The translations under genes were made by a program, and so were the position numbers. Of a stretch of 64,000 bases of DNA, positions 2,579 through 49,540 are shown in pieces. The DNA is from Ancylostoma caninum (Eukaryota > Nematoda > Chromadorea > Rhabditida > Ancylostomatidae): contig JBAJFG010000336.1 in the NCBI GenBank assembly GCA_037903475.1, forward strand, positions 434,001-498,000, in the 5' to 3' direction. The notes under the pieces are model-generated. The model did not search any database. It saw only the letters and a list, made by a program, of their open reading frames with translations, and was not told the DNA's origin. Position 1 is the first letter of the stretch; each line of letters opens with the position of its first letter.

Positions 2579-5000
2579 AAACAATTCCTGGATTACTATG
2601 ATCCAACGATTGAGGACCAATATATTCAACACTGTGAAGTGGACGGAAATTGGGTAATTATGGACGGTAAGATTTTAGTGGTGTTTGCTTGAGCACGTAT
2701 TTATTGGCTTAATTATTCTTTTTCCTACTTGCTTGACTACTTATGTATCTATTACTTTCTACTAGTTTATTTATTTGAACGTTGTCAAAGGCTGAAGTTG
2801 TACAAGTACTCAGGTCATATTTCTTTTATGAAGTCTTAAATGTGCGGTATATGTAAGCAGCTCATCATGCAGTTCTTTCATTATAGTGCTTGATACTGCC
2901 GGACAAGAAGAATTCTCTGCGATGCGAGAGCAATACATGCGAAATGGTCGAGGATTCCTGCTGGTGTTCTCAGTAACAGAGCGAAAAAGCCTTGATGAAG
3001 CCGTGAAATTGTACCGACAGGTGCTGCGCGTCAAGGACAGGACCGAGTATCCTGTACTGCTGGTCGCTAACAAGGTAATCAATAAACAAATCATAAATTA
3101 CTAAAAAATAAAGAAACAATTGGAAAATGGCTCAACTTCCGTTTCGAACTTTACCGTTATACGGAAGCTGAGCTGAAAGCGTAGGACTTCCCCCAGTACT
3201 TATCACTAAGAGAGCGGAAGTCCTAAGCTTCAAACTAAAATATGAATCGAAAAACTCACCAACTCGACTGCATCCTTGTCCTTTCCGTCTGCCGGGTGGG
3301 GGACTAGGAATATAGGCTAGGAATAGAAGGAATAGAAATACTCTCAAACTTGGGTAATTAAACCATTAAGCTGGTTGAGTAGGTACAGCCAAGTTTCAGG
3401 TTACAAATTAAACGATGAACGGTTGATTAAGCTTTCGAAGCAGTTATAAAAGGTCGACACCCGCACGACCTCTCCTCTCTCACCCGTAAAAAATCCTACC
3501 TTCCATCTCTTCAGCAGACACATTCATACCGCTTTTGGTGTACAAATTTGCACTAAAAATTTGGGAAACCGAAGTTTGGCGTGAAGTTGGAAGAGAAATT
3601 CGGGTATTATTGGGTTGGGCAATAAGTTCGTGCGGTTTTTTTTTCAACTCGAATTCTTACAAGGATTCGATCTAAGTCCGATAGCTTGTCATAGGTTATC
3701 TTGTAGCTCTAGACTTGCTCTTTACAAATATCATAACCAATGTCCCCATTTCCCGCTACTTCTCATTTTCTGTCGCATGAAATGTGACCCTCCAGTTCGA
3801 CAAGAGCGTACATCTCCGAGGCCTCCAGCAGTTCCGTAGAATAGTGGAACAAATGCAGCTCAAGCTGTTGGAGATGTGAACAGCGTCTAAGTGGAAGCCA
3901 TAGCTGTAGATGGGACAGCGCAGAAGTGGATGTCTGCTCTATACTTTTTACCGAATAAAAGTCGAATAATTTCGTTACTTCAATTAATAATTCAGGAAAC
4001 AATTTAAACATCCAGGAATTCGAGAATGAGGAAGCTCTGAACTTCTTCTCTTCCATACAGTACTTTATTGGCCTCCAATGTTGAAACAATTGAATTTTCC
4101 ATTTATTCGAAGTATTCGATATTCGAAAGCAAAAATATTTGATTTCAAATAAATAGAGAAATCAAGTGTTCCACCACTGGAGACCAATTCAGTGCTGTAT
4201 GAGGGAGAAGAAGAGCTTTAGGGCTTTCTCGTTCTCGAATGTCTGGACATTTAAATTGTTTCCTGAACTGGTAATTGAAGGAACAGAATTATTCGATTTT
4301 TATTCGGTCCAATGTATAGTCTGCTCCAGAGAGGGCGATTTTGGGCTGGAGGATGCACCATGTTCTGTACGCACAGTTCCTAGAGTTATGAAACGATTTT
4401 TCGCAAACACTTGTTCTAGATGTGAAGAAGAAGTACTGCGAATATTAATTTTCAAAAAAAAAACCTAGGTTCAACTGGCTGGTCCACTTCATGAGAGTAC
4501 ACTGAATGCTCAGAAAAACCGCACGAACTTATTGCCCAACCTAATACTTTTGAGAAATCCTTGTGAAGTGACCTCCAATTAGTTCGATAATCTTTTTTTT
4601 TGGGACATTACAGATCGATCTCACTAATCAACGTGTTGTGACAGAAGCTGAAGGACGGAGTGTTGCTGCAAACTTGAAACTACCGTATATCGAAACTTCG
4701 GCTAAGGTACTGGTCATCTTTAGGCCTTTAGGCCCGTCATAACCACGATCACATCTGGTTACAGGACCCTCCCGTCAATGTAGACGCCGCTTTTCACGAG
4801 CTAGTGCGAATCGTGAAGAGTTTCCCCTCGGATGAAGATGAGGAAGAGGTCTGTTCCCTGTCCAAATTCAACAATTGAGTGTTTTAGTTCTTCTTAATTT
4901 TTTTAAAATTTATATTGGTTTCCAGAACAGCAATGGTGTCTCGCCAAATCGAACAAAAGCAAAGAAGAAGAAGGTTAAGCAGAAGTGTGTTATAATGTGA
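2579..5000 (+). CDS. ras-2: M-Ras/R-Ras type small GTPase, 5' part missing
   Basis: Five exons join in frame: 2579-2666, 2887-3074, 4614-4706, 4765-4848 and 4926-5000, giving 175 residues to the stop. This is a membrane-anchored signalling GTPase that cycles between GTP and GDP. Visible Ras motifs are the effector loop DYYDPTIED, the G3 box DTAGQEEF, the NKID box split by the third intron, and ETSAK. The ETSAKDPPVNVD run and the lysine-rich tail resemble M-Ras more than K-Ras or Rap. The protein ends in a polybasic stretch and the CAAX box CVIM, whose final Met suggests farnesylation. The P-loop exon is not in the window. Orthology to C. elegans ras-2 is inferred from family knowledge; an R-Ras (ras-1) relative is the alternative. 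All splice sites are GT/AG with matching phases. Confidence 0.9.
3610..4544. mobile_element. Mariner-derived element with TA target duplication, in a Ras-gene intron
   Basis: The ends are inverted repeats of about 30 bp. The left end starts TTGGGTTGGGCAATAAG and the right end reads the same in reverse complement with one change. TA flanks both sides (3608-3609, 4545-4546). Inside, roughly 3960-4089 and 4166-4300 are diverged inverted copies of one segment, and 4320-4400 keeps a GDFGLED-like stretch typical of mariner transposase. No intact transposase remains. Confidence 0.85.
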
Positions 5001-8247: not shown

Positions 8248-11200
8248 CTACGGATGTCTACATTCGTCGTATTGGTAGGACGCGGCACCACTGCATACGC
8301 AGTACCAATACTGCCGGGACCCGGACATTCCCATGTATTGTTGTGCTGAAATTGGAGAAAGGGATCAGAGGCTCCGTCCATCATCGCTAGTGCTGCGATT
8401 AAATCAATAAGGCCTAAGGCCAAAAAATTAATCAATTAAAAATCAAATCAATTAAGATCTTGGCCAATCGCCTACCTTCACATGCGTATGCTGCCCTCTG
8501 GTAGTACAAGGGCTGATAGTAAGAGGAATATGACGGTCGGTAGTAAGAAGAGTAATATGGCTGATAATATGGCTGTCGGAATCCGATTAGACCTAGAAGG
8601 ATCTAGCGGCGAAAGTACAGATATTCTATTATGTTAGGTTGGCGAGGAAGTAATGTCTGAGATTTTCATCTTTTTGTTTTTATTGTAACTTTATTTCACA
8701 ACATACTCAATCAGCAATATAATCATCTTTGTTAGCTATGACAATGCTCCGCCTATCGAGCAAGATACTGATTCCCCCTTCCCAGAAATGCGGGGTGTGA
8801 GAGTCAAAGAACTCAGCAACCGCCGTCTTGCCATCATCGAATCTAGCAAAGGATTTCTTGGAAAGGAAAGCCTCAAGAGAACGGAACAAATAGTAATCAG
8901 ATGGGGATAGGTCAGAGTAGGGTGGGTGAGGTATGGTGTCCCAGCCCAGCAGGACTAGTTTGGACTGCGCCTGGATGGCAATGCGAGGTCGAGCGCTGTC
9001 ATGGAGGAGATGCACTAAAGCCGTTCTGTGCCGCTTATTTTGGAGGACATGAGCTAGTTCGTGGAACTGATTGATGTATATGGTAGCGGTGACCGTCCTT
9101 CCTTGTGAGGGCAGCTCGCAGTACAACATTCCTTTGCGATACTAGAAGCAGCAAAGGTGGGATCGCGTAGAGAAATCAAGTCTCATCTCCTCTAACCAGA
9201 TCTTCCAGGAATTCCTTGTGGCGTGGGCCGAGCGTGAGAGACTGACAGATGATCAGGCAGCTCATCATGGCACGCTCGGTCAATTGATGAGGGACCATCT
9301 TGCTAAAAGTTCCAGGTAGCCAAGCTCATGGAGGTGGTTTTCTACAGTCTATTCAAGCTTGTCCGCCAGTTTGTGTAAACCCACTCCTTGATAGCCGTGA
9401 CCAGAGATGAGTTATCGAGTGACTGTGGTCGACCAAAATGAGGTTGATCTTTGAGGTCCTTTTCTCCCTTCAAGGAATGAAAGAATCAACGGCGTACTTT
9501 GCGTTCGTTGGCGAGGGTCTTCTTGAATACAGCGTCAATGTGAATCCTTCCCGATTTGAGGCATAATTGAAGCGGTGGTCCTGTCACTTATGTTATAAAC
9601 CATTGATATGATAGCTTCGAGAATCTTCTCCAACATTATGTAAGCCAGACCCCGTCTCCGTTGCTCTTTGAAACGAAAGTAGGCTTTGAAAATTTTCGTA
9701 CATTACTTCCTTGCCAACCTAATATGAAACTTCCAGCAAACTGATCAAACGTTAGCCCGCAGCACAATACAATTAATCGACTCACCTCCGAGAATAGATA
9801 GAAGCCCACCGCCTCTTCCATATCCATATCCGCCACCATACCCACTGCTTGATCCTAGAGTTTTTGATGGATTTTCACGAAACATATAATATCTAGAGAT
9901 GACAAGAAAGTTCAGTGTGCCCTACTTACCAAAGATGTGGGAATCAGATCCAGAGCTGAAATGAAGACGATTGATGTTCTCGAATTGCAATAGAAAGTAG
10001 TAAAATTTCTAAGAAATTATTGTCTGCAGTTACGAGATGGAGCAAGTAATATATTTGGTAATATCTTAAACTGTGAAAAGTAAATTTCCGGAAAAGGTTG
10101 GGAGGGAGTGGCGGGCGGAAAAAAGATGGAGCACCTCCTACCTAACACTTACTATTGCCATTCATTGGTCGAAATTACACTGTACTATTTCTTTCTGCTT
10201 TTCGCAAAGCGAAACAGGGCTAGCTTCACAAGGTGACTCTGAACCAACAGGTGCGCGGCACCATCGAGGGTTTGTCTATGATATGCCGGCTTACCCATGA
10301 TCATGATCGTGGTGGTGGTAATGATCACCGTGATCATGTCCACCGTGATCATGTCCATCGTGACCATGTCCATGTCCACCGTGACCTAAATGTACTGTAT
10401 TTGACAGATAGTTTTAATTGGTGACTGTGCAGTATGTACCTACTTACATACATAAGATCTGTCACTGAAAAGCTAAAAGCTGCCTCACCTCCTCCGCCTC
10501 TTCCGCCTCCACGTCCACCTCTTGCTGCAACAAATCCTGAAAAAGAATTCGATGATCCTCGGTAAGAAGTAAGTAATAAAAAGTTCATTGTGATTCTTAT
10601 GATTATGTTTCTCGAATACTTCATATCACAAGGAAAAGAGAAAAAATTAACGATTCATGAGATATTTTTAGCAAAGGGACGTTACAAAATAGAGAGCTAG
10701 CTCATTAAATCCTTGTACTAGAAATTGTGTCACTCTAGCACAGACAAAAAGGATTTTTTGACATTTTCGCAAGGAAGGTTGTCTAGAAGAGAGCTAACGT
10801 TGAGTTGCATCCGTCAAAAGTGGCAAATCTGTGGGAGATCGATAGCTTATCTCGTGAACTGTAGCTCTCCCAACATCGAGATTCCCACATGTCAGATCAA
10901 AATCCTGGAGTTTGAGCCGGAGTAAGGTTTAAACGGTGAGTCTACAGCAACACCACTCATCGGGTGTGGAGTGCCAAGGAAGGAGTTTTTGTAAGGATAC
11001 AGATATTCGTTGAGTGTCACTAGATCCTTTGCAATAGCATGTTCTTAGATGCAACCTCATCAAAAAATGGGAATCGTCGTTTGAACTTGCGCATTTTGGC
11101 CCCTATACGAGTGAAAACGAGAATGTTTGCCTCAACATGTCCTAAGGAACTCAATTCAAGCTCGTGTTTTAATTTAGCCATGCTTTTCCGTTCGTCTTGA

Positions 11201-11695
11201 TATGTTACACGATGCGGCATCGATCGATATATCGATTAGATGTAGGGTACTGGCAATCAAAAGGTCTAACCAAAAATGCGTAGAGAACTAGAAAGGCCTA
11301 GCCGAGACGAATTGAATCCTGGAAAAGAATCACCTTCGATTGGATCATTTCTGAAGGAGTTATGGCAAAGCGATGGCGAATGACAGTGACCTTGCAGAGC
11401 GAGCGTTGGTTTTTGATCAACACTATTGTAATGGTAAACACACACATGATTTTTGAAATGGCGCTTTTGGGAATTTTTGGAAACAATGTATACTTTTATT
11501 TGTTTTCCTGATGGTGTACGGAGCAGATCAATCGCATTTGATAAAACAAAAAAAATATATTTCTCAGAGAACCCTGGTTGATGAGTTACTATCTGCAGTT
11601 GGAAGGGCACAATTAGTCAACAAAAAGCAAAAAAAAAAACTCGGACCTTGTAGGATGACCATTGTCATGAAGACGACCACGTGCGACGAAAGCAT
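8248..11695 (-). CDS. Gene A: secreted Gly/His/Tyr-rich protein, 165 aa
   Basis: Seven exons on the minus strand join with perfect phase: 11647-11695, 10489-10536, 10295-10385, 9930-9955, 9786-9854, 8476-8592 and 8248-8345. The family is not recognised. Residues 1-20 look like a signal peptide (start MLSSHVVVF). Each later exon adds one module: a Gly/Arg-rich linker, a run of His with Gly and Asp, a short Ser/His link, a Tyr-Gly block ending GGGLLSILGG, a Gln-Pro-Tyr block, and a tail with four Cys ending DECRHP. The His block suggests metal binding and the Gly/Tyr blocks suggest a structural or adhesive role; both are inference. The exon-1 donor is the weak GTCCGA, shared with gene B. A mariner sits in the intron before exon 6. 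The exon-for-exon paralog at 13.4-16.8 kb supports the model. Confidence 0.85.
8634..9722 (-). mobile_element. Mariner-like element 1, in an intron of gene A
   Basis: The ends are inverted: TTAGGTTGGCGAGGAAGTAAT at the left, and its near-perfect complement ending CCTAA at the right. TATG follows on the right and precedes on the left, so the exact target duplication is unclear (TA expected). The length is about 1.09 kb, as expected for a mariner carrying a transposase on the minus strand. Confidence 0.85.
8707..9620 (-). pseudogene. Decayed mariner transposase (element 1)
   Basis: An open frame of 140 codons at 8707-9129 carries the C-terminal catalytic part. HDSARPR holds the second catalytic Asp, and the third lies in the PPYSDLSPSDYYLF block 34-35 residues on. 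Upstream, 9130-9620 still resembles transposase sequence but is broken by stops and frame changes, so no full-length enzyme can be made from this copy. Confidence 0.75.
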
Positions 11696-13448
11696 TTGAT
11701 TGTGTAGTGACCAACGAGAGTGTTTTCGCGGAGGAATTTACACTATAACTAGATGAACCCAGATACAGAACGCGCCCATCAACAACGCGTCGTTGGGTAA
11801 GTGACAGTGACATCATTTTGATCACGCTATCTGTTCTAGACAGCCAACAGCTCTCATAGATCCTGCTTATTCTCTAAACTTTCTCGAAGAAGTACGGCAG
11901 GATTAAATTAGTTCTAACGGCTTCGTCGTTGTCGATCCTCGTATATAACGAAACTGCACTGATGCTCACTGCATAACATACTCATAGCCCCCGCGCTACC
12001 GTGATTCGGAAGCAACTGCATCTGCAGGACCAGTGGCACTTTGTCATATACGTCTTATTTGCGCTAATATGAGGACGAGCGCGACTTCATACACCCGTCG
12101 TTTCTGCGAATTCATAACAGTGAAAATTTTTATTATTCAAGTGAATATACGTCGTTTCAAAATTGGCACATAGCAGTGATCCCGAGTCATTATTAATTAT
12201 CAGAAAAAGGTTGCATTTCATGGAACAATTTGTACCTCGTCTTCAGTTGTTTTCTTTACATGACATGGTATTGCACAGAAATGATCAATCAATAGTGAAA
12301 ATGGGAAAAGCACTTGTACAGGGATGGTCATTCGTTATTGCTCAGACAAATTGTCGGAAGGACCGCAGCAGAAAGAGATCGCGCTCGTGTGGTTAAGAAG
12401 CGAGAGACGCAGAGATAAAAATTTTCGGAAGGACCGCAGCAGAATGTTTTCTGCTGCGGTCCTTCCGAATCTCGCTGGAGTGGTTCGGAAAGACCGCAGC
12501 AGAATAGATTTGTGTGGGGAAAGATTCGGAAGGACCGCAGCAGGAAACCGGAAGAACCGCAGCAGAATGTTTTCTGCTGCGGTCCTTCCGGTTTTCTGCT
12601 GCGGTTCTTCCGAGTGCAGAAGGACCGCAGCAGAAAACCGGAAAGACCGCAGCAGAAAGGAGGAGAGAGAGTGAGCGTTATTATACCCTTCTCATGTACG
12701 GAGCTCAGTTCTGTTGCGACCAACAAAAATCAAGTGGTTCCGAACTTCAGATGGGAAATTGGCTTCATAGGTATATTGGACCGTAGAAAAAGTGACCCTC
12801 AGCGAGGTTGTCATTTTTGCGTGTGGTTACTGCCGCGTGGTCGTCCCACGGGAGTGGACTAGTTGTCAATGCAGTTCTGCGGGATTGGCGCGCACATCCC
12901 CGTATCCAGTCGGGAAGACCGCTGTAGCTATTCGGAAGTACCGCAGCAGCTATTCGGGAGGACCGCAGCAGCTATTCGGAAGGACCGCAGCAGCTATTCG
13001 GAAGGGCCGCAGCAGCTGTTCGGAAGGACCGCAGCAGCTATTCGGAAGAAATGCAGCAGGAAACCAGAAGGACCGCAGGTCACCTGTCGGTTCTTCCGGT
13101 TTTTTGCTGCGGTCCTTCCGAAAAATTGTCTGAGTGCACGTCTGAAAACGAAGCCGCGCCACAGTACCTAAGCGGTGCAGAAGACCACGTAGGTGTTATC
13201 GTTGTCGAGTATTACCGGAATTACCGCTTTCATACACAACAGGGTAAGTGTATAAAAAAATGCCCATACGTGCAGAGATTGAGCTGTGGAATCTACAAGC
13301 AATTCCGGCAACACCTGACCATCAGAGCACCAAACTGGTCTGCCGCGCCGCTTAGCTGCTGCGGGCGGCCTCGCCTTCAGGTGTGCAATAACGATTGACT
13401 ATCATTGCAAATGCGCTATCTGTATGTACAGCTCGCATATTGGGATCA
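11696..13448. other. Spacer between genes A and B
   Basis: This holds the upstream region of gene A and the duplicated 3' flank of gene B. Blocks at 12130-12240 and 13142-13310 repeat the left flank of gene A. The roughly 870 bp between them has no counterpart at gene A and is filled by the 22 bp repeat element annotated separately. No gene seen. Confidence 0.6.
12354..13121. repeat. Dispersed element built from CGGAAGGACCGCAGCAG repeats
   Basis: The unit CGGAAGGACCGCAGCAG occurs many times in both orientations. From 12354 to 12660 the copies alternate as direct and inverted pairs, with hairpins at 12425-12468 and 12549-12612. From 12911 to about 13060 the copies form a clean 22 bp tandem array (unit plus CTATT). 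A non-repeat core of about 240 bp lies between. A diverged inverted copy of the whole, core included, lies at 49085-49540. Long open frames through the array are by-products of the repeat and not genes. Confidence 0.8.
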
Positions 13449-16400
13449 CTAAGGATGTCTACATTCGTCATATTGGTAGGACACAACGCCGCTGCACACG
13501 CAGTACCAGTACTGCCTGGATCCAGACATTCCCATGTATTGCTGCCCTGAAATTAGAGAAAGGGATTAGAGACGCCTTCCCTAATCGGTAATGCAGCGAT
13601 CAAATCAAATCGATAATTCTGCTACTTAGGCTAAAAATTAGTCGATTAACCCAATTTAATCCAATTAAGGTCTTGGGAAATTGCCTACTGGCACAGGTGT
13701 ATGCTGCCCTCTGGTAGTACGACGGCTGATAATAAGAGGAATACGAGGGCTGGTAGTAAGATGAGTACGACGGTTGATAGTATGAAGAGTATGACGGTTG
13801 GTAATATGGCTGTCGGAATCCGATTAGGCCTGAAATTATCAACGCTAAAATTGTAGTATTCCATGAGATCTACAGCAAGATGGTGAATCGTAAGTCTGCG
13901 ACAGAGCACTGAATCGACGCACCTCCAAGAATAGATAGAAGTCCACCGCCTCCTCCATATCCATAGCCGCCACCGTATCCACTCCCCAATGAGCTTGATC
14001 CTGAAGTTCCTTAAAATAATTTCATAGGTAATACAACCTAGAAATGATGAGAGAATTCGGAGCGCACCACCTACCAATAGATGAACCAAAGATGTGGGAA
14101 TTAGATCCAAAGCTGAAATTATTAATATTCTTGATTTGTATTAGGTTGTCGCGAAAGTTTCCCGCCACTATTCGATCTTTTTCCAATTTCATTTTTTTAT
14201 TCATTACAGCTGATATTTAATGTACGTATGAACCATTATTATCTACAACATATTGCCATTCAACTGGTCACTTGGATTCCGCTTGCATAGAAATTCTAAG
14301 ATTTTGATTCGAAAAACTCGCCGAGCCACTTTTTGAGTTGTTCCAAATCGTCGAACTTTCTGTCTCTTAGGTGATTGGATAACGACAAGAAAAGATGGTA
14401 GTCTGTGAGCGCTGGGTCTAATGAATACGGTAGGTGGGCCAGAGTATGCCATCCTAAGCTCTGCAGTTTTTGCTGGGTCTCTCTCGCAATGTGTGGACGA
14501 GCGTTGCCATGTAAGAAGTGAACTTTGTCTTGTTTCCCACGAAGAGCCGCAGCGACGCAATCCAGTTGCATACAGTAGATTTCAGTGGAGACAGTAGAGT
14601 TTGTTGGTAACAGTTCCCAGTGAATGATTCCTTTGCAGTTCCACCAAACACTGAGCATTACCTTCTGAGAGTGTAGTTCTGTTTGTGGCGTCAGGATTCC
14701 AGGTTCGTCGCGTCCGAGCCACTGGCGCTTTCTCGTGTGGTTTGCGTAGAGGACCCACTTCTCATCACCGGTAACCAATAGTCCAGCCAGGTGATAGTCC
14801 TTCGAAAAGTCAAAAAGTTCATCCATGCATCTCTGCGCACCTGGAGCTGGCGACTACTCAGATCGTGAGGTATCCATGCGCCGTACTTCCACGTCTTTCC
14901 GGCGCTGCGCAGGTGAAGGGCCACTGTATTGTAATGACACCGGAGTTTATCTGCCAGTTCACGGGTATCGCGGCAAGGATCCTCTTCAATTAACTCTAGG
15001 AGTCGCTCCTGATCGACTTCAACTGGTCGACCGGATCGTGGTTTATCCGTCAACTCAAAATCGCCATTTTTGAACTTCCGAAACCAAACTTTGGCCGTGT
15101 TGTAGGAGACAGTTGAGGGACCATTGCATCACATTTGTTTTTGTGGCATCTCTTGCACTGCTGTTTTTTTCTGAATTTGTAAAGCAGGAGTCGAATCTGC
15201 TTCGAGTCTAGGACGATTACTTCGGCCATAATCCCAACCGAAAGCCAAGAGAAGAAAAATGTAAGTAGTCCATTGACCAACCTTTGTATATGTTTCGGAT
15301 AGGAAGATCCAAACAATCCTGAGGAAACATGTAAGGTTTCGAAGTGAGTGGCGGGAAACTTTTGCGACAACCTAATATTAAACACACTTCGATTTCAAAC
15401 AAAATATTTTCCGTGAACCAAGAAAGCAACAAAACACAGTAACTGCGACATAAGAAACTTCTCGAGGACAGACTCGGAAAGAGTGACTGGAAGGAAAGCG
15501 TGGAAGGAATTCAGTATCTTAAAGTTACTTTTATAACTTTTATACTATTGGGATAGACATTTGTGCATCTTCAATGCCTCCAACTACATATAATACGAGC
15601 ATTTGTCGACGTCGTCCGGTGGTGCTTCCCCCCCCCCCTTCTATCTTTGGTAACTTCTTACTCCTGAGACAGGTACGGTTTCCACGCAAAATACAGTAAG
15701 CGCCGATGACGGTGCGTTTTTTCGCGGACTCGAGAGGCACGCTACGCGACCGCGCCGCTTGTGCTGGAACCTTCGCCACCACAACAAAATATTGGGTTTT
15801 CTTGATAGTTAGTTACTTTTCTACGTAGTTAACATCAATTATGATGAGGAACTACCAAGACAATCCGATTGGCCGCCAGCGATTCCACAGCAGGCAGTAT
15901 GGCTGCGCCGCGTGGTTTTCGTGTCTGTGAAAAATGCACTACCATCGACGCTCAGTGTATATGAACAGGCGATGGGACAGCCACAATCGACAACTATAGT
16001 CCATAACCTCTCCATTCTTTAATGTAGTCCTCAAAGCGGCTATTTCAGTTTCACACTACTCATCGTATACAAAACCCTTAAACATTTTTCCATGCTCTCA
16101 AGGTATGCTGACGAACCTATGAGAATGATGATGGTGGTGGTGATGATGCCCTCCATGGTGGTGATGATGTCCACCATGACCATGTCCACCATGGCTATGT
16201 CCACCGTGACTGTGTCCACCTAGATATATTGCATTATTCGTTACCCGTGGAATGTATACCTGCTTGTCAGCGCAAGATCTAAGTAGCAAGCTAAGCTATG
16301 ATTGAGCAGAAAAGTGCCTCACCACCACCACCTCCTCCTCCACGTCTTGCCGTTACGAATCCTGAAAAATAGTCCATTGCTTGTTTATAGAGAGTATGCC

Positions 16401-16802
16401 ATAATTTTCACTGGAACGTCCCAGGGAACGTCCCAGTGTCCACTTCATGAAAGTGAAGGGATCAACGTGTGATGCAGAATTTCAAAGCTATAAGGTGTAC
16501 ATATAAGGTGCTATTGGTTGCAATGCAGATCCCCCAGCAAGATCCTCATTGTCACATGTTCGACTAAATGTGTGTTGGGGTCTAAGAAAGGCTTCCGACC
16601 CGTCTCTGTTACGTCATTGAACTGCTGTTAAATATTCTCCAATATAAATGCTACCAGATTCACTCTTGCTTTAAAATTCTGTTGGTTTAGCCTCTCGAAC
16701 AATAAAAATGGGCAAAATGATACCCTCCATGAACAACAAAACAAAACTCGGACCTTGCAAGATAACCAGTACCAGAAAGACGAACACATGTAAGCGGAGC
16801 AT
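13449..16802 (-). CDS. Gene B: secreted Gly/His/Tyr-rich protein, 184 aa, paralog of gene A
   Basis: Seven minus-strand exons: 16754-16802, 16323-16361, 16117-16219, 14075-14112, 13923-14009, 13689-13829 and 13449-13546. Every intron phase equals that of gene A. Exons 1 and 7 have identical lengths in both genes (49 and 98 nt) while the low-complexity exons differ. The start MLRLHVFVFLVLVILQG is a strong signal peptide. The His block is longer and purer than in gene A, with runs of up to six His. The Tyr block has four QPSY repeats spaced by SSYY. The tail again has four Cys and ends DECRHP. Function is unknown; metal binding and an extracellular structural or defence role are possibilities only. 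A mariner interrupts the intron between exons 3 and 4. Confidence 0.87.
14141..15375 (-). mobile_element. Mariner-like element 2 (1235 bp), in an intron of gene B
   Basis: The inverted ends begin TTAGGTTGTCGCGAAAGTTT on the left, with the complement at the right, and TA flanks both sides (14139-14140, 15376-15377). The length and the minus-strand transposase are typical of a nearly complete mariner. The ends differ from those of element 1 and of the Ras-intron element, so at least three mariner groups have inserted in this window. Confidence 0.92.
14296..15230 (-). pseudogene. Mariner transposase with frameshifts and a lost catalytic Asp
   Basis: The transposase is readable in pieces: an N-terminal helix-turn-helix start at about 15230 (MAEVIVLDSKQIRLLLYKF), a middle part at 14830-15110 with NGDFELTDKPRSGRP, and a C-terminal part at 14296-14826. 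At least two frame changes separate them. The C-terminal part keeps TGDEKW (first Asp) and the final YSLDPALTDYHLF, but the usual HDNARPH reads HGNARPH, so the second catalytic Asp is Gly. This copy is dead as an enzyme source. Confidence 0.85.
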
Positions 16803-18025
16803 TTGATTGTGTGGCGACAGATCAACGAGACTGTTTTCGTACGCGGAAGAATTTACACTATAACTAGATGAACCCGGATAGTGAACGCGCACATTGATGA
16901 CGCGTCGTTGGGTGAATGACAATGACATCATTCCGATCACGCTATCTCTTCCAGACAAACAGTGGTTCTCAGAGATTCTGCTAAACCCTCTACTTATTCG
17001 GAGAAGTAGGCCAGAAATAGACTACGCCAAGATCTGTTTTTATCTACCCTTAAGCTTTGTGAGATACTGATTTCTTAGACAAATAACAAGACAAGCAGTG
17101 CTTGCAATTGCTGCAACTTTTCAATCCAAAAAACCGCCAGAAAATTCGGGAAAGGTGTGTTCGGTTTTTCTTATGAGAAAACTGCGGTGAATTTGGATTT
17201 CTACCTCAAATCGTTGAAAAAAAAACTGGATGGCTCAATTTTCTGTATTCCTCTGAAAAAAGAGGTCTTCGTTAGAAATAATCTGGATATATAAAAATGA
17301 AAGATTGTTAGTGTGTTTGTGTGTTTCGAATAGAAATCGCGGAGGATGAACCGATCGGGACCAAATTTTTGTAGGTTCTTCGGGAGCCGGCGGAGGTTAT
17401 AGGGTACTTCGCACCTAGGATTATCGATTGATTTATCGATTGTATCGATTTTTCACAATTTTTGCGCGGAGGTCGGTGAGGACATGTCTGCTGGAGTTCT
17501 TTGATACGCTGATTACGAATATGACAACCACTTCGCACGAAATATTGATTTAGTGATTTTGTTGATTTTTGGCTCTTCTGCCCAATGAAGCGGTGAGGAA
17601 ATGTCTCCTGAGGTTTCTCAATACGCTGAGTACGAATACAACAACCATTTTGCACGAAATATTGATTTATTGGTTTTATCGAATTTTTTCCAGGATGTTT
17701 GTGGATAATCTCCATACCTTTTTCTCCTTCCACGTTTTGGTAAACGCAGGCAAGTCAGAAATTAGTCTTTGTTACTGTTTAAGTAAAACAGTGAGCAAGT
17801 CTAAATATTGTGTGCATATTGATTAGGATAATGTAATGTTCCAGTGAGATCGAATAATCTCACGAAGCAGTTACAGATAAGACACGTGCTGCACGACCGA
17901 TCCAGAAACATAGGTAGTGGTACTCACGAACTTTTTCGGAAATGGCAGTGATCGAGAAAGGTCAAGTTCTCTGAGCACGATGTGACGATGAGTGTGTACC
18001 CATTTTTCTCTGGAGAACCACCGTA
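16803..18025. other. Spacer upstream of gene B; no gene recognised
   Basis: About 16803-16960 is the duplicated proximal upstream region shared with 11696-11830, so it may hold promoter elements common to genes A and B. Between about 17470 and 17690 a diverged direct repeat of about 120 bp occurs twice, each with a GCACGAAATATTGATTTA-like end; the 141-codon open frame across it on the minus strand is probably a by-product. Confidence 0.5.
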
Positions 18026-18811: not shown

Positions 18812-19794
18812 CTAACCGCGGATGATGCGGCGATTTGGGCGTGCAACCGAATTCGAATGCTTTCTTCTGTGAGATTGACCACCTGATCGTCCGAAGCGAC
18901 CACTACGCGGTGGGCACGGACAGTACTGTGCATCTCCTCCGGGAGCACCAGGCATACCTGCGCCGCCGGGCATTCCATCCGGACCAGGTGATCCCATCTT
19001 TCCTGACTGTCCGGGGGGTCCGGGGGGTCCAGGAATCGGGGCACCGCCCGTGCCCGGCGCTCCAGCTTGTCCGGGAGGTCCCATTGGTCCAGGTGGTCCT
19101 GCCATTCCTGGTAGTCCAATGCTGCGCTGTCCAGGAGCTCCTGGGTTACCGGGTGGCCCAGCATTTCCTGGATTTCCTGGTGCACCTGCATCTCCAGGTG
19201 GTCCAGGTGGTCCAGGAGGTCCTTGGCCGCCGCCAGTTGCAGCCTGTCCCGGTGGTCCCATTGGTCCAGCAGGTCCATTAGGTCCATCGTTTCCGGGTGG
19301 TCCAGGAGGTCCCATTGGGCAAGGAATGCAACCAGCAGGCCCAGCGACTCCACCAACTTTAATGCCATCATGACCGCGTCTGCCCGGTTGACCTGGTTTG
19401 CCATCTTGTCCAGGAAGTCCAGGCTCTCCTGGAGGACCGGGTGGTCCTGGAGGGCAGTTCAAGGGCGCCGGTCCGCAGTTGCAATGAGGTGGGTATTGGA
19501 ACTGACGACGTTGGCGTGAGACTCCAAAAATTGCTGCTCTTCTATCTCGCACTTGCTCGTACGACGGTCTCATCTCGTGCCAAGCCGAGTTGGCTAGGTC
19601 CTGAAAAGATCGATCTCAATGGTGTGCACACATAGAGAAGTGCAGATTCTTACCCTGAAGTCCGAGAGCTCCTCAATAGCATCGTAGTAGAAGTTGTTGA
19701 TGTCATTGAAGAGGTAAAGGAGAGTCAGAATGGAGAATACCGTGCCGGCAGCGGTCAAACCGGCAATGCCGGTAGCGATATTCGTTGTGCTCAT
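18812..19794 (-). CDS. Cuticle collagen, 309 aa
   Basis: Two coding exons, 19654-19794 and 18812-19600, join in phase 0. The product is a secreted collagen of the nematode cuticle that trimerises through Gly-X-Y repeats. The N-terminal 47 residues hold a hydrophobic segment ([16 protein letters not shown]) acting as signal anchor. RQRR at about residue 71 is a likely subtilisin cleavage site. Then come a CNC...C cluster, a short Gly-X-Y block, an interruption with CIPC, a long Gly-X-Y block rich in Pro, and a YCPCPP cluster before a basic tail. This is the usual order and length for the col family. The first ATG after a probable splice acceptor (TTATTTAG) was chosen. Which col gene it matches cannot be told from sequence alone. 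Confidence 0.95.
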
Positions 19795-26800: not shown

Positions 26801-29717
26801 CTATGAAGATGGCAAAGCCTGCTATAGCGACTTTTTTCAGCGTTACTACATCTTGGGTGTCAAACGCGACATTGTTTCCTGCCGAGATTGTCAAGGAGAA
26901 TCTCGCGGAGTTCTCTTATATAAACGGCTTACCTGAACCCATAGCAAACTTAGTTAAAGAGAAGATCGAGTCCTGGTTTCCAGTACAGGTAAGGTGAACT
27001 GTAACTGATTTTACCTAGTTCTAGTCTCCTACACATTCTACCTAAGTACGCTTTCTCTTATTTGCATTTCCAGAAAGCTGTCCTTCCTTGTCTTCTCAAA
27101 GATATCGTAGTTATCCCTGTTATACGACCTCGTGATATTGCAATTTCAGCTCCAACAGGTACGATCTCCTTACTTTTATCTTGCTCGAGTTAATCTTCAA
27201 AATTCCCTTGATTCTCTACCTCTGGATTGAAACAGCATTCTTCCAGGATCTGGTAAAACACTGTGCTATGTACTACCAATTTTGGCTCAGATTGGAACTC
27301 ACCCACGTGGCCAGTTACGAGCACTTGTCGTAGTACCTGTTCAAACACTTGTCAAGCAAATAGAGCAGGTTCTTCCCTTCAAATTTTCCTTTTTTCATTT
27401 CTTGATTTTTTGCTTCTCTTAATGAGGTTTCTGTTAACTATCTTCTCGTTTCAAGGAGTTCAAATCATTCAACGCTTGTGGTGCGGTTATTTCCGCTCTC
27501 TCTGGAGCGACGGACTTTCGAAAAGAGCAGCAAAATTTGGCTCCTGAAGGTGTCTGTATATCTGACGTCATCATTTCAACTCCTGGTAGACTTATGGACC
27601 ACTTAACTAACCCTTCAAGTGGTATAAAACTCGATTCGCTCAGGTGAGGTTTTCTTTCAGCTGTTTGCTTCGTAGCTCTTCGAGAAGGTTCTTAGTAGTG
27701 GTATTTAGGTTCTTAGTAGTGGATGAAGCCGATAGAATGGGCACGATGGTGAGGCAAGAATGGCTGGCAGTTGTGGAGCGACGCAGTGGAGGTGCTCAAT
27801 TTTCTCTTAAAAGTTCGTCCCTTTCACGCCTTCGCGCTAGTCGGGAGATTTCAGGTCTCATGAGAGCTACGTGCTTAGCGGACATACTTGCAACACGTTG
27901 GGCTCCACGGAAAATCCTACTGTCGGCTACCTTGTCTAGAGACGTTGAAGAACTGCATATGTGGAATCTTCACCAGCCTCGTTTATTCCGTGCAGATGAA
28001 TCGAAGAGCAAAGAGGTAGGAGTCTAACCATTACAAGTTGTAGTGTCTTAATACATCTTCTATGTAGACAAATTTCGACTTCATATTCATCTGTGGAATG
28101 AAATCGTGGCTGAAACGTGGATGAGCGACCCAGCTACCCCTTCAATAGTTTCTCTTTTTTTTTCCTTAATGGACCGCGAAAATCTTCCTCCCTCAAATGT
28201 CATCTGAAGTCCGACTCCTTTTTTTGTGCTAAGAATTAGTGGGGTTGATCACATCACAGAAGATGATTAGATCATTGCTTCACATTAGGTTGTTTTGAAG
28301 TTTCTAGTTATCAACCGAAGTAACCAACACCACCAATTTGTAGCATATACGTGTTTGTCCTTACCTTGCCAGCTAAATATCTCCAAGGTTCCTATCTTGC
28401 ATTAGTTTTTCCAGGTTGGCGTGGATCTTCACGCTTTAGACCACGTCTCTGGTGCTTTATCACTTCCTTCAAGCATACGACACACTGTTCTGGCTGTTGA
28501 GCAGAAGTTCCATCCTCTGATGTTGTATTTAAAGATTATGGAGAATGATTGGAAGAGGGTGTTGGTGTTCACTAATGAAAAGTGAGTGTTTTTTCGTTAA
28601 ATTTGTTTGGTTTGCCAGATCTTTTTTCTTTTTCTATCTTACTTTATAATTGTTGATATTCTGTTCGTTGTTCCCACGGTGTTCTCACAATCTTGGGTTT
28701 AACTATGCGTCTTGTTTCATCTGCCTATTCTATATCATTACAGAGAATCTTCTTTGCGACTTTCTATACTTATCTCTCGTCTCGCCAAGTCAAGGTTCAC
28801 TGTAGAACAGCTTACTGGTGATTTGTTCGGAAATCGAAGAGCGAAAGTGTTGAAAAGGTTTAAGAATGGAACAGTGAGTTTTTCGTACTTCTTTCTCCAT
28901 TTTTAATCATATAATAATTTATTTTATCAAGCATTTCAATTTTTTCCATTGTTTTGCATCCCTATGATGAGATACTGTGCACCATAACCCACTGTGTTTC
29001 TCTGTATTGACACTTGTTCTCTGCAAGTGCTATCAAATTTCTTCTATTTATTCTTGATGTTTAGACCCGAGTGCTGATCTGTTCGGATGTGCTGTCTCGA
29101 GGCGTTGACGTGGAAGCTGTTGATTGTGTTGTGAACTATGACCTTCCCAAAAATGATCGACTGTTTGTTCATCGTGCTGGACGCACAGGTCGAGCGGGGA
29201 AGTCTGGACATGTTTTGAGTCTGGCGGACGGAGAGGCGGTATGTTCATTTTCTTACCGATAATTTGTCTGATATTACGGCTGTTCACCTTTGTTTAGTTA
29301 TTTTTGAGACTTTGTTTTTAGCGGAAGATATTTGTGAAGAATGTGTTGAAAAAGAATGGATTATGGGTGAACGCAGAGGAGGTCGTAGTTGAGAAGCAGA
29401 CGCTTGAACCTCACCTCCACCGCTATGAAAAGGCGCTTGCTCACCTGAAGAGGACAGTCGAGGAGAAAAAAGCGGCTAATTCCTCAAGTGAGTTGTCAAC
29501 CTTCTAGGGATACGGCAGCAGGTTACCATATTTGCCTGTTTTGTTTTCATTATTCATGAATATTTCAACTCACAATTGCTCGACTTTTCCAGACAAAAAA
29601 GGAAAAATAAGCGGATTTGCGTATCGAAAGAAGGCAAGGTACCAGATGATCAAAGAAAAGTTGAAATCCAGAGGTCAGAAGCCATGGAAGAAAGAAAAGA
29701 AAGATTCTGGTATTTGA
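23816..29717 (+). CDS. DDX51: DDX51/Dbp6-type DEAD-box RNA helicase, 671 aa
   Basis: Twelve exons join in frame (2016 nt): 23816-24090, 24174-24302, 26841-26988, 27074-27158, 27247-27368, 27456-27643, 27709-28015, 28415-28581, 28744-28873, 29065-29238, 29322-29487 and 29593-29717. The enzyme class unwinds RNA with ATP; DDX51/Dbp6 acts in nucleolar 60S subunit assembly. An acidic Ser/Asp/Glu N-terminal part precedes the core. Motifs seen: WFPVQ (Q-motif region), APTGSGKT (I), STPGR (Ib), DEAD (II), SAT (III), [10 protein letters not shown] (V) and [10 protein letters not shown] (VI). The Lys-rich tail suits a nucleolar protein. The length matches the animal family (about 670 aa). Assignment to DDX51 rests on the Q-motif context, the split-core layout and length. 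Intron 2 is 2.5 kb because two transposable elements sit in it. Confidence 0.93.
24488..25064. mobile_element. Inverted-repeat element, helicase intron 2
   Basis: The ends are complementary: GGCACTGTTCCACTTGTTCTG on the left and its complement at the right, followed inward by CCCCAAAATCTCAAGA. Internal blocks repeat GTGATATTCGTGATCAGCATG and TAACCCTACC-like tracts. The same family is at 32633-33185. No coding content. Confidence 0.8.
25383..26756. mobile_element. MULE-like non-autonomous element, copy 1
   Basis: Ends are CATAGGTGCGATA and TATCGCACCTATG, exact inverted repeats, flanked by the 9 bp direct repeat GTTATTAGT (25374-25382 and 26757-26765). A 9 bp duplication fits Mutator-like elements. 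The 1374 bp body contains only short frames. A close relative occupies 60439-61809. It lies wholly within helicase intron 2. Confidence 0.85.
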
Positions 29718-29989: not shown

Positions 29990-31631
29990 ATGAGTGGATT
30001 GTTGACAGAAATTGTTTCTGACTCGTTAGCGTTGAATGCCTCGCAAGAGTGGGAAGATGTGTTTCTCTACACTCCATTCTTGAGTAAGTTTTACTGTATT
30101 TTGTTGCTGGGTCGGTTGGATTCTGATATAAATGTAGATTATTACATACGTTTGAATGATTTTTCTCCTCGTCTAGGTTTTTTAGCCGCTGGTTGAGTCA
30201 GGGAAACTTCTGGCTTGCTAGAAGTTTAACTCCATTATTCACTTTTCCAAGTTCATGTAATCATACCCAGCATAAAACATATCGGGTTTAAATCCATCCT
30301 TAAAATGCGACCGAATTTTAGATGACCAGGCTCTTTCGTATGAGTATGCGGAATGTCTGGCGGCGCAGGCATTTCTTCGAATGGCCCATTTAAGCTACTT
30401 CGTGAAGCAGCGACCTAATGCAGAGTTCATTTCCCCAACTGGTGGGTTTTAGTAGTGGTGTAAGTTTCGGCTTTTTGTCACACTATGAAAACCTGAGGTG
30501 ATTCTCGATTTTGCAGGTAAAGTTCCTTTGCTGAAAGTTCGGCGTACCCTGATCCCTGAGTTCAGCGGCATTGTAGACTTTGTAGCCAAGAAAGTGGGTT
30601 CTCCAGGAATTTTCTCTGTAAATTCGTATTCTTCATGCATTCTTTAGGGAGTGAAACTGTGTGCACATCTCAGCGATGCACAAGTAGCTGAAATGCGTGC
30701 GCACATGTCTGTCATGGATGTTCTACTGCGGAATGTTGAGGTATTTTTTTAGTTTTTACGCGGTGCCTTGAATGTGGTAGATACAGCTTTGTTTCAGATG
30801 TACGTCATGTGGAAACACAATGAAACCTACACACAGTTGACACGATATCGCTACGGGTCTGTCTATAAGTGGCCTTTGAACTGGATTCTGCCAGCTATGA
30901 AGCGGAGGGAAATTCTTATAAAACTTCACGACAGCGGATGGGCAGACAGGGTTAGTATTATTTTTTGTTTTTAAGTATATGGTGGAAAAGGTGTGATTCA
31001 GGAGAGTTAGCCAAAAAAGATTTCAGCTTTTGGAAAGATGTGATTTTATTCTGTGCTAATTTTTTGTTGTCAAACTGTGAAGAGTCCTCGGAACGCTCGC
31101 TTTTTCTACAAATTTTAAAGATTTCTAGAAGTTCCTTACTTTATGACCACATATCCGTGTATTTTATTGTGTATTTTTCGAAGAGTCTAGGTTTGACTTC
31201 TTCAATTATACTGTTTTAGAGTACGGAAGAATTTTTTGTTGTCAAACTGTGAAGAGTCCTCGGAACGCTCGCTTTTTCTACAAATTTCAAAGATTTCTAG
31301 AAGTTCCTTACTTTATGACCACATATCCGTGTATTTTATTGTGTATTTTTCGAAGAGTCTAGGTTTGACTTCTTCAATTATACTGTTTTAGAGTACGGAA
31401 GAAGTGTTGGAGCAGTATGAGAAAGCTTTGAGAGCGCTGTCATCACAACTGGGCTCAAAACCGTACCTATTCGGGAATCAGCCAACGGAAGCCGACGCAT
31501 TGCTGTTCGGACATCTGTTCACGATAATCACAATGTCACTGCCTTGCTTGGATTTGAAGAATGCGATACTCAACTACACTAATCTGCAGGATTTTGTTAC
31601 CCGAGTTGAAACCGAGTACTTCAAGATTTGA
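29990..31631 (+). CDS. mtx-2: Metaxin-2, 258 aa
   Basis: Six exons in frame: 29990-30083, 30322-30441, 30517-30593, 30648-30740, 30798-30950 and 31392-31631. Metaxin-2 is an outer mitochondrial membrane protein of the SAM complex, which inserts beta-barrel proteins; it also links mitochondria to transport adaptors. Family signatures visible are AAQAFLRMAHL, AEFISPTGKVPLL, RYGSVYKWPLNWIL and the GST-like C-terminal run QPTEADALLFGHL. The length agrees with animal MTX2 (about 263 aa). It starts 272 bp after the helicase stop on the same strand, which suggests one operon. The acceptor of the last exon lies in the second copy of a 172 bp tandem duplication; the first copy's acceptor would lead to an early stop. 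Confidence 0.95.
31060..31403 (+). repeat. Tandem 172 bp duplication including a 3' splice site
   Basis: Two nearly identical units, about 31060-31231 and 31232-31403, differ at one base that I can see (TTTTAAAG against TTTCAAAG). Each ends with TATACTGTTTTAG followed by AGTACGGAAGAA. Only the second acceptor leads into the open last exon of metaxin-2. Confidence 0.95.
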
Positions 31632-33307
31632 TTGCCAGTGATTTTGTTAAGAGTAGTCATGTTAGGGTAGGTTCTAGTTGTCTTGACACTCAGTCATTCT
31701 TATGATTATTTGAAATATCTTGAAAGTCCCGAAAATTATAAAAAAATATGACTGTATTTTTTCCTACCGACACGTGGCTGACGCTGCGCTTGAAAGCTTG
31801 TATTAGAAGCACAACTCTCTGCAATGCTCCAAATAAAAACATTATCCTTTTCCATGCTGTGTTCTTTTCCTCCTTCCTGTATTTTAGCATTGGTACAGGT
31901 ATTTCCGTGCAGAGTATCAAATAATTGAATAATTCAGTTCAAACGCTGTTACTATTACAGTTTATAACTCAAAGTCAGCACCTGTCAAAATCCTCGACGA
32001 TGAGTTAAAGTGCCAGTAGTGAAAACCACGGTCAGCGTGTAGCAAATGTTAAACGAACACAAACAACCATGACTTACCTTTGAAGAAACTCTAATCGCAG
32101 TCACAACTCCTCCGCCTTACAATAAAATTATATGTGCCCATGTGGTGAAGACGCGCCATCTTACAATGATCCGGTCACTGACACTAACACGCGCGATTTC
32201 TTCGTGGCGGGACCCACGAGTTTAAATGAAAGCGCCATTAGACGCACAGAATGCAGCACCATGACTTTGTATGTTTCTCGTGTGTTTCGCGCTATTTCGA
32301 CATTGGATATGGATTCTATGTACGAAGGTCCCTCTCCTCTCAGAAATTCGGAAAATCTCAAGCAAGACGACTTGAACCGGTGCTGCTCTTAAGTGTGAAG
32401 AAACGAGCGAAGTGTGTTTTTGCATGACAATGGAATTTCGGCGCTAAACGGTAAACATCGAAGCCCTACCATTATACACGTTGACTGACCCATGTTTTCA
32501 TGCACTTTTCGCTCTGATTTCTTACCAACACCGTTCCCGAGATGGGACAGGATGTACGTCGATCATATCTACCGTTAGATAACCTGTTATTTATCGTGCT
32601 TTCGCGATCCGTGCAGACTGTGCAGAATTTTTGGCACTATTCCACTTGTTCTGCCCCAAAATCTCAAGACCAAAAATTTCCCTAAAACTTCGTCTAGGGG
32701 GGTTTTTTGACATGCTGATCACGAATATCACATTGGTTTTGCACGGTAACCCCATTTGGGTAGGGTTATGGTAGGTATACTTACCCTCACCCCACCGTAA
32801 CCCTACCCAAATAGGGTCACGGTGCAAAATGAGCATTATATTCGTGCTCAGCATGTCAAAAAACCCTCGTGGACAAAAATCCAGGTGTTTTTGTGAGATA
32901 CCATACTTACCCTTACCCTACCGTAACCCTACCCAAATGGGGTTACCGTGCAAAATCAATGTGATATTCGTGATCAGCATGTCAAAAAACCCTCGTGGAC
33001 AAAAATCCAGGTGTTTTTGTGAGATACCATACTTACCCTTACCCTACCGTAACCCTACCCAAATGGGGTTACCGTGCAAAATCAATGTGATATTCGTGAT
33101 CAGCATGTCAAATAACCCCCCTAGGCGAAGTTTTCGGGAAATTTTTGGTTTTGAGATTTTGGGGCAGAACAAGTGGAATAGTGCCGAATTTTTGACTGCG
33201 GCAACAAGGGATATGTGCATTTACGACATTAGTAATATGACGACGGTATTCAGAGCACTGTTCTAGTAATGTCGATATTCCTGATTTTCTACTGCTTGTA
33301 CATATAA
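31632..33307. other. Intergenic; contains one inverted-repeat element, no gene recognised
   Basis: The 86-codon open frame at 32132-32392 (+) ends in two Cys but has no recognised family. The 32633-33185 element fills much of the rest. Confidence 0.5.
32633..33185. mobile_element. Inverted-repeat element with internal 126 bp tandem repeat
   Basis: Arms of about 145 bp begin GGCACTATTCCACTTGTTCTG and mirror at the right end. The centre holds two copies of a 126 bp unit (starting near 32851 and 32977) with CCCTCGTGGACAAAAATCC and TACCCTTACCCTACCGTAAC. It is the same family as 24488-25064. Confidence 0.85.
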
Positions 33308-35544
<2,237 letters not shown>

Positions 35545-49084: not shown

Positions 49085-49540
49085 GTAGTCAATCCTATGT
49101 AGATTTTGCATGCCCAGACGATTTTTCGGGAGGGCCGCAGCAGAATACCAGGAGAAACGACAGGTGACCTGCGGTCCTTCCAGTTTCCTGCTGCATTCCT
49201 TCCGAATAGCTGCTGCGGTCCTTCCGAATGGCTACGGGGATGTGCGCACCAATTTCGCAGAAATTCCTCACGCAACCAGTTCACTCTCGAGGGACCACCA
49301 CGCGGCGGTACCCTCAGAGAAAATGGCAACCTCGTTGGGGGTCAGTGGCTTTACGATCCGATACATTCATACGCCCTATTTCCTATCTGAATTCCGAGAT
49401 TCTTGTTGGTCGCTGCAAAACTGAGCTCCGTACATGAGGAAGGTATGATAACGCTCACTCTCTCTCCTGCGTTCTGCTGTGGTCCTTCCGGTTTTCCGCT
49501 GCGGTTCTTCCGAATCGTTCCCCACACAAATCTATTCGGT
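49085..49540. repeat. Inverted, diverged copy of the CGGAAGGACCGCAGCAG element
   Basis: Read in reverse complement, this segment follows 12600-13140, including the non-repeat core (CATGTACGGAGCTCAG near one end, GCGCACATCCCCGTA-like near the other) and shortened repeat arrays at both edges. It shows the element is dispersed and not a local satellite. Confidence 0.8.

What the first reader, a model, noticed from the sequence alone, without database searches (positions are those of the whole stretch)
8248..16802. Tandem pair of unrecognised secreted Gly/His/Tyr-rich proteins
Two seven-exon genes share all intron phases, a signal peptide, a His-rich exon, a Tyr-Gly exon, a Gln-Pro-Ser-Tyr exon and a tail with four conserved Cys ending DECRHP. 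Totals are exact: 498 and 555 coding nt. I know no family with this order of modules. A His block plus Tyr/Gly blocks plus a Cys tail could bind metal, form an adhesive or cuticle layer, or act as a defence peptide; none is shown.
Basis: partly seen in the sequence, partly recalled or inferred. Interest (0 to 1): 0.75.

Follow-up and report, generated by a model that had tools for sequence, protein, structure and literature searches.

The report
Strongylid-only secreted matrix-like protein pair
Two neighbouring worm genes, probably from a hookworm, encode small secreted proteins with histidine-, glycine- and tyrosine-rich stretches and a conserved cysteine tail; they belong to a so far unnamed protein family seen only in strongylid parasitic nematodes and are most likely building material for a cross-linked body or secretion coat.

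Summary
They look like real genes: A against B gives dN/dS 0.15 overall and 0.07 in core plus tail, and the same order of modules stands in a public Haemonchus contortus gene model. Three protein searches returned 10 different proteins, every one from a strongylid. The tail spacing C-x16-C-x-C-x10-C is invariant in 11 of 11 complete tails. Pfam gave only weak hits, the best under its cut-off, PDB gave no relative, and the listings of ten paper searches showed no description of the family. Six of six public models tested appear to read the His exon out of frame. Best reading: a secreted, mostly disordered extracellular-matrix protein, with a Tyr-rich segment for cross-linking, a Gly/His segment for metal or pH response, and a small disulphide-bonded beta tail for anchoring. 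The architecture is shown; the function is inferred. The defence-peptide and cement rivals stay open. It is a new family of a known kind of protein.

The parts
16754..16802 (-). gene B exon 1: signal-peptide-like N-terminus (MLRLHVFVFLVLVILQ)
   Evidence: hydropathy peak 3.19 over 11 residues
16323..16361 (-). gene B exon 2: GFVTARRGGGGGGG, likely cleavage region and Gly run
16117..16219 (-). gene B exon 3: His/Gly block
   Evidence: a His block at the same place in the H. contortus public protein
14075..14112 (-). gene B exon 4: short Ser/His linker
13923..14009 (-). gene B exon 5: Tyr-Gly block and LLSILGG
   Evidence: dN/dS 0.056 for residues 85-113
13689..13829 (-). gene B exon 6: FRQPYY plus SYSSYYQP repeats (24-nt tandem repeat 13716-13806) and first tail Cys
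13449..13546 (-). gene B exon 7: tail QQYMGMSGSRQYWYCVCSG..SYQYDECRHP and stop
   Evidence: Cys spacing invariant in 11 of 11 complete tails
11647..11695 (-). gene A exon 1: signal-peptide-like N-terminus
10489..10536 (-). gene A exon 2: GFVAARGGRGGGRGGG
10295..10385 (-). gene A exon 3: His/Gly/Asp block
9930..9955 (-). gene A exon 4: short Ser/His linker
9786..9854 (-). gene A exon 5: Tyr-Gly block and LLSILGG
8476..8592 (-). gene A exon 6: FRQPYY, Tyr/Pro/Ser repeats and first tail Cys
8248..8345 (-). gene A exon 7: tail with CVC..DECRHP and stop
16803..17102 (-). gene B 5' flank, 71% identical to that of gene A over 292 aligned bases (five shuffles of the B flank: 38-51%, on 101-279 aligned bases); an identical 27-mer lies at 16849 and 11734 with no third exact copy in the window
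11696..11995 (-). gene A 5' flank, the duplicate of the above

Best explanation
The two genes are tandem paralogues of a family found so far only in strongylid nematodes. It encodes small secreted structural proteins of an apical extracellular matrix (cuticle, larval sheath or a lined duct). Shown by sequence: secretory-type N-terminus, Gly/His segment, Tyr-Gly segment with a short hydrophobic patch, Tyr/Pro/Ser/Gln repeats, and an invariant four-Cys tail. Predicted: the long middle is disordered and the tail is a small three-stranded beta sheet. Inferred: the Tyr repeats are oxidised to dityrosine by the peroxidase/dual-oxidase system that nematodes use on cuticle tyrosines; the Gly/His segment binds divalent metal or switches with pH to drive assembly; the disulphide-bonded tail docks the protein into the matrix or pairs with a partner.
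For: Purifying selection strongest in core and tail (dN/dS 0.067). All Cys spacings invariant in 11 of 11 complete tails. Full module order in the independently annotated H. contortus protein P0009. Relatives in Ancylostoma, Necator, Heligmosomoides, Nippostrongylus, Trichostrongylus and Haemonchus. Composition from residue 22 on: Gly 23.3-24.3%, Tyr 13.5-14.6%, His 11.1-13.5%. AF2 models of P0009 and P0001 agree: the middle is under pLDDT 50, the tail is the best part (10-residue block means up to 86 and 88) and has three strands; in P0009 the N-terminal helix is middling (65-76). A collagen ORF on the same strand (18812-19615) ends 2.0 kb upstream of gene B (weak). From papers: C. [quoted passage not shown] dityrosine is cited for the cuticle of H. 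contortus larvae, the cited title naming the infective-larva sheath (Fetterer and Rhoads 1990 as cited in PMC9612446, passages; not read).
Against: No expression, tissue or proteomic data. No sequence or fold link to any known matrix protein. His and Tyr richness also fits cement, defence or metal-sequestering proteins. The His exon shows no codon-position signal of its own. AF2 rests on nine rows, several of them with wrong N-termini; mean pLDDT 55 and 53, pTM 0.24 and 0.28.
Confidence: 0.5

Rival explanations
1. Glycine-rich antimicrobial or metal-withholding defence peptide secreted by epidermis or gut, in the manner of nematode glycine-rich secreted peptides (GRSPs); the His block withholds zinc or copper.
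For: Meets the size and Gly-content criteria for GRSPs given in PMC10506718 (at most 200 aa, more than 17% Gly; passages; composition). Tandem duplication is common in such groups (recalled).
Against: That paper calls GRSPs linear and without other conserved motifs; here the most conserved part is a four-Cys tail. The Tyr/Pro/Ser repeats have no clear place in this model.
Confidence: 0.17
2. Adhesive or cement of the reproductive system (for example male copulatory cement), setting by metal and tyrosine chemistry like worm or mussel glues.
For: Gly/His plus Tyr/Pro/Ser repeats resemble glue and byssus proteins (recalled, not tested). Repeat number differs between A and B (alignment).
Against: No sex or tissue data. 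The resemblance is one of composition only.
Confidence: 0.15
3. A secreted product directed at the host, such as a metal- or haem-binding protein of the feeding stage.
For: All 10 homologues found come from parasitic nematodes (lifestyle recalled); His-rich segment.
Against: The searches needed shared 5-residue words, and only the 7983 and 7987 candidates sharing most words were scored, so free-living relatives could have been missed. Tyr repeats and predicted disorder fit a structural role better.
Confidence: 0.1

Closest known systems
Unnamed public strongylid proteins, e.g. H. contortus V3C99_012822, A. duodenale ANCDUO_10077 and Aduo_007869, N. americanus RB195_011968, N. brasiliensis Q1695_010904/_010906
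   Same: Same core and tail; V3C99_012822 has the whole module order, N-terminus included
   Different: Called hypothetical or unnamed, some with automatic names that do not fit. Six tested models read the His exon out of frame, P0006 shares the N-terminus of one of them, P0001 starts without the signal exon, and one Necator model (RB195_011975) loses the tail
Cysteine-cradle aECM proteins (SPIA-1, DPY-6; Pfam PF23626)
   Same: Nematode secreted proteins with a four-Cys domain at the C-terminus; two disulphides possible
   Different: Spacing C-x22-C-x7-P-x3-C-x9-C and four alpha helices (PMC11925461, passages), against C-x16-C-x-C-x10-C and predicted beta strands here
Glycine-rich secreted peptides (GRSPs) of nematodes
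   Same: Small, secretory N-terminus, over 17% Gly
   Different: GRSPs are described as linear and without other conserved motifs (PMC10506718, passages); here there is a conserved Cys tail
Epicuticlins (Asu-EPIC-1 and kin)
   Same: Secreted, disordered, tyrosine repeats; some clade V members hold Cys
   Different: Tyrosine motifs GYR and YGD in repeats of about 50 residues (PMC9612446, passages); none of these is present here

Membership tests
Strongylid Gly/His/Tyr-Cys-tail family (this family) | C-x16-C-V-C-x10-C tail with QQ[YF] and YQY | tested here: met
   11 of 12 rows (2 window, 9 public); the twelfth row, P0007, has no such tail in its model
Strongylid Gly/His/Tyr-Cys-tail family (this family) | order: secretory N-terminus, RRGG, His block, Tyr-Gly, hydrophobic patch, RQPYY, Tyr repeats, tail | tested here: met
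   A, B and H. contortus P0009; the other nine public models are incomplete or misread upstream
Cysteine-cradle domain (PF23626) | Cys spacing C-x22-C-x7-P-x3-C-x9-C | tested here: not met
   spacing 16, 1, 10 in every complete tail; motif from PMC11925461
Cysteine-cradle domain (PF23626) | globular domain of four alpha helices | tested here: not met
   AF2 gives three beta strands in the tail in two models; a prediction, no experiment
Cysteine-cradle domain (PF23626) | match to the Pfam model | tested here: inconclusive
   no match; I did not verify that this Pfam copy holds PF23626
Glycine-rich secreted peptide (GRSP) | at most 200 aa and mature Gly above 17% | tested here: met
   165 and 184 aa; 24.3% and 23.3% Gly from residue 22 on; criteria
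Glycine-rich secreted peptide (GRSP) | signal peptide | tested here: inconclusive
   hydrophobic 11-mers of mean hydropathy 2.53 (A) and 3.19 (B); no signal-peptide predictor was available
Glycine-rich secreted peptide (GRSP) | linear, no other conserved motif | tested here: not met
   invariant four-Cys tail
Glycine-rich secreted peptide (GRSP) | a known C. elegans GRSP among the top five C. elegans hits | not testable with these tools
   no C. elegans proteome at hand
Epicuticlin | GYR (PF02756) and YGD motifs | tested here: not met
   neither string occurs in A or B (read from the translations); no Pfam match to it
Epicuticlin | tandem repeats of about 50 residues | tested here: not met
   repeat unit here is 8 residues (24 nt)
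Fibronectin type I / VWC-like CxCxG modules (recalled resemblance) | Pfam or fold match | tested here: inconclusive
   no Pfam match; none among the fold matches listed, which does not exclude it

The most novel reading that the evidence does not exclude
A strongylid-specific self-setting matrix protein: metal- or pH-triggered assembly through the Gly/His block, dityrosine cross-linking through the Tyr repeats, and anchoring by a new minimal four-Cys beta domain, forming a structure peculiar to strongylids such as the retained larval sheath or copulatory cement.
Probability: 0.15. Interest if true: 0.7.

Novelty: new variant of a known kind. Interest (0 to 1): 0.42.

Why it matters
Strongylids include hookworms and the main roundworms of livestock. 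Matrix proteins confined to this group, if they sit in the sheath or adult surface, would be parasite-specific markers and a handle on how the sheath is made and shed. The corrected gene structure also suggests that low-complexity, many-exon secreted genes are being mispredicted in public strongylid annotations, so the family is largely hidden at present.

Tried and rejected

Paper searches (open-licence PMC only; I saw titles and starts of abstracts, 20 of 97 papers and 10 of 83) turned up no description of this family. I read passages of PMC11304992 (and its section 16), PMC11925461, PMC9612446 and PMC10506718, and no whole paper.

A tree of 12 short rows puts gene B with the two A. duodenale proteins (83/87) and A outside them, which suggests that the duplication is older than that species split; 4 of 9 inner branches are open and only 2 of 9 are starred. 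The row P0007 there lacks the tail.

The frame test covered six of the ten public homologues (P0002, P0003, P0004, P0005, P0008, P0010). With the frame moved by two bases 22/25, 33/36, 43/47, 55/60, 44/50 and 54/57 codons can be Gly or His; shuffles of the same peptide reached that in 20, 3, 1, 0, 2 and 0 of 1000; pieces of a transposase ORF reached at most 11, 15, 19, 23, 19 and 22. Shuffle means were also high (18.4 to 40.8), so composition carries much of the signal. P0001, P0006, P0007 and P0009 were not in that test.

Full report
Anatomy. Two genes run on the minus strand between 8248 and 16802. Rebuilding them exon by exon gives 498 nt for gene A and 555 nt for gene B, all introns GT..AG, with intron phases 1,1,2,1,1,1 in both (one search corrects a one-base slip of mine in A exon 3). 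The products are 165 and 184 residues: a hydrophobic N-terminus, an Arg/Gly stretch, a His/Gly block, a short Ser/His linker, a Tyr-Gly block with LLSILGGLIGFRQPYY, Tyr/Pro/Ser/Gln repeats, and a tail with four Cys ending DECRHP. From residue 22 on they are 23.3-24.3% Gly, 13.5-14.6% Tyr and 11.1-13.5% His.

Duplication. Exons are 67-92% identical, introns 45-75%, and the 300 bases 5' and 3' of the coding parts 71% and 70%, all over aligned bases; the 5' flank of A against five shuffles of the B flank gives 38-51%. A 27-base upstream block is identical in both and has no third exact copy in the window. tblastn of A, B and the tail found no third copy in the window (next tail match at E 0.14). 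Introns carry two different mariner-type elements, one in each gene (8634-9722 and 14141-15375; transposase domains, ends read).

Reality. Aligned codons give dN/dS 0.151 (163 codons) and 0.067 for core and tail (91 codons) at dS about 0.77. Differences fall 24, 17 and 53 at codon positions 1, 2 and 3. The His exon is the exception (dN/dS 0.45; 10, 5, 8), which fits a segment kept for its composition but does not by itself prove its frame; the H. contortus public protein, with a His block in the same place, does speak for it. No transcripts could be examined.

Relatives. Three protein searches gave 7, 9 and 10 hits (E limits 0.01, 1 and 10), 10 different proteins in all and every one from a genus of strongylids (order recalled): Ancylostoma duodenale (two), Necator americanus (two), Heligmosomoides polygyrus (one), Nippostrongylus brasiliensis (three), Trichostrongylus colubriformis (one), Haemonchus contortus (one). 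A. duodenale is 95-96% identical to gene B in the matched part, so the window is probably from Ancylostoma (inference). Neighbouring locus tags in Necator (011968, 011975) and Nippostrongylus (010904, 010906) suggest clusters there too (inference from numbering). The H. contortus protein V3C99_012822 has the complete module order from secretory N-terminus to tail. The searches need shared 5-residue words and scored only the 7983 and 7987 candidates sharing most words, so absence from Caenorhabditis is not proven.

Public models. In six of six public proteins tested (of ten found), moving the frame by two bases can turn the N-terminal stretch into almost pure Gly and His, which is what the out-of-frame reading of exon 3 looks like in the window. 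P0001 begins with residues that resemble the end of intron 1 read through into exon 2 (compare). The family is therefore present in databases but mostly misread. Shuffle controls show that composition alone yields much of this signal; the order adds to it in each case (0 to 20 of 1000 shuffles reach the observed value).

Tail. C-x16-C-V-C-x10-C is the same in all 11 complete tails; the twelfth row, a Necator model, has none. AF2 on H. contortus P0009 and on A. duodenale P0001 agree: pLDDT under 50 through the middle, and three short strands in the tail with block confidence up to 86 and 88; P0009 also has a middling N-terminal helix. These are models on nine rows with low overall scores (mean pLDDT 55 and 53). 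Foldseek and VIA found nothing meaningful. Pfam and PDB sequence searches found no relative.

Comparison with known kinds. The closest in plan are the cysteine-cradle matrix proteins of nematodes, but their Cys spacing and all-helical fold differ (PMC11925461 passages; PMC11304992 section 16). By size and glycine it would pass two filters for GRSP antimicrobial candidates (PMC10506718 passages), but those are described as linear and lacking other conserved motifs. It lacks the GYR and YGD motifs of epicuticlins (PMC9612446 passages). So it would work like a secreted matrix protein, but it is a member of none of these as far as tested.

Mechanism. I favour a structural role: Tyr repeats as cross-link sites, His/Gly as a metal- or pH-responsive assembly segment, Cys tail as an anchor (0.5). 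Tyrosine cross-linking is the known chemistry of nematode cuticle collagen (PMC11304992 passages), and dityrosine is cited for the cuticle of H. contortus larvae, the cited title naming the sheath of infective larvae (PMC9612446 passages). Shown: gene structure, selection, family, tail spacing. Predicted: disorder and tail sheet. Inferred: everything about place and function. A same-strand collagen ORF ending 2.0 kb upstream of gene B is weak support. Defence peptide, cement and host-directed product remain open.

Noticed in passing
8634-9722 and 14141-15375: Two different mariner-type elements with inverted ends inside intron 5 of gene A and intron 3 of gene B; each holds a transposase piece that matches Transposase_1, and the reading frame looks split in at least the second.
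   Followed up: partly
about 12350-13110 and 49188-49233: Copies of a 22-base unit (GGAAGGACCGCAGCAGCTATTC), dense and in both orientations between the two genes, with a second array near 49.2 kb.
   Followed up: no
18812-19615 (-): Collagen ORF on the same strand, ending 2.0 kb upstream of gene B (Pfam Collagen).
   Followed up: partly
31058-31403 and 32777-33118: Tandem duplications: 172-base unit at 99% matches and 126-base unit at 94%.
   Followed up: no
2832-3104 (+), 27611-28027 (+), 31392-31631 (+), 33504-33725 (+): Pieces of a Ras-family gene, a DEAD-box helicase (below the Pfam cut-off), a GST_C_6 gene and a protein kinase (below cut-off).
   Followed up: no
public proteins P0001-P0006, P0008, P0010: Public strongylid gene models of this family appear to start in an intron (P0001) or to read the His exon out of frame (six tested; P0006 shares the N-terminus of P0005), so database annotations hide the architecture.
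   Followed up: partly
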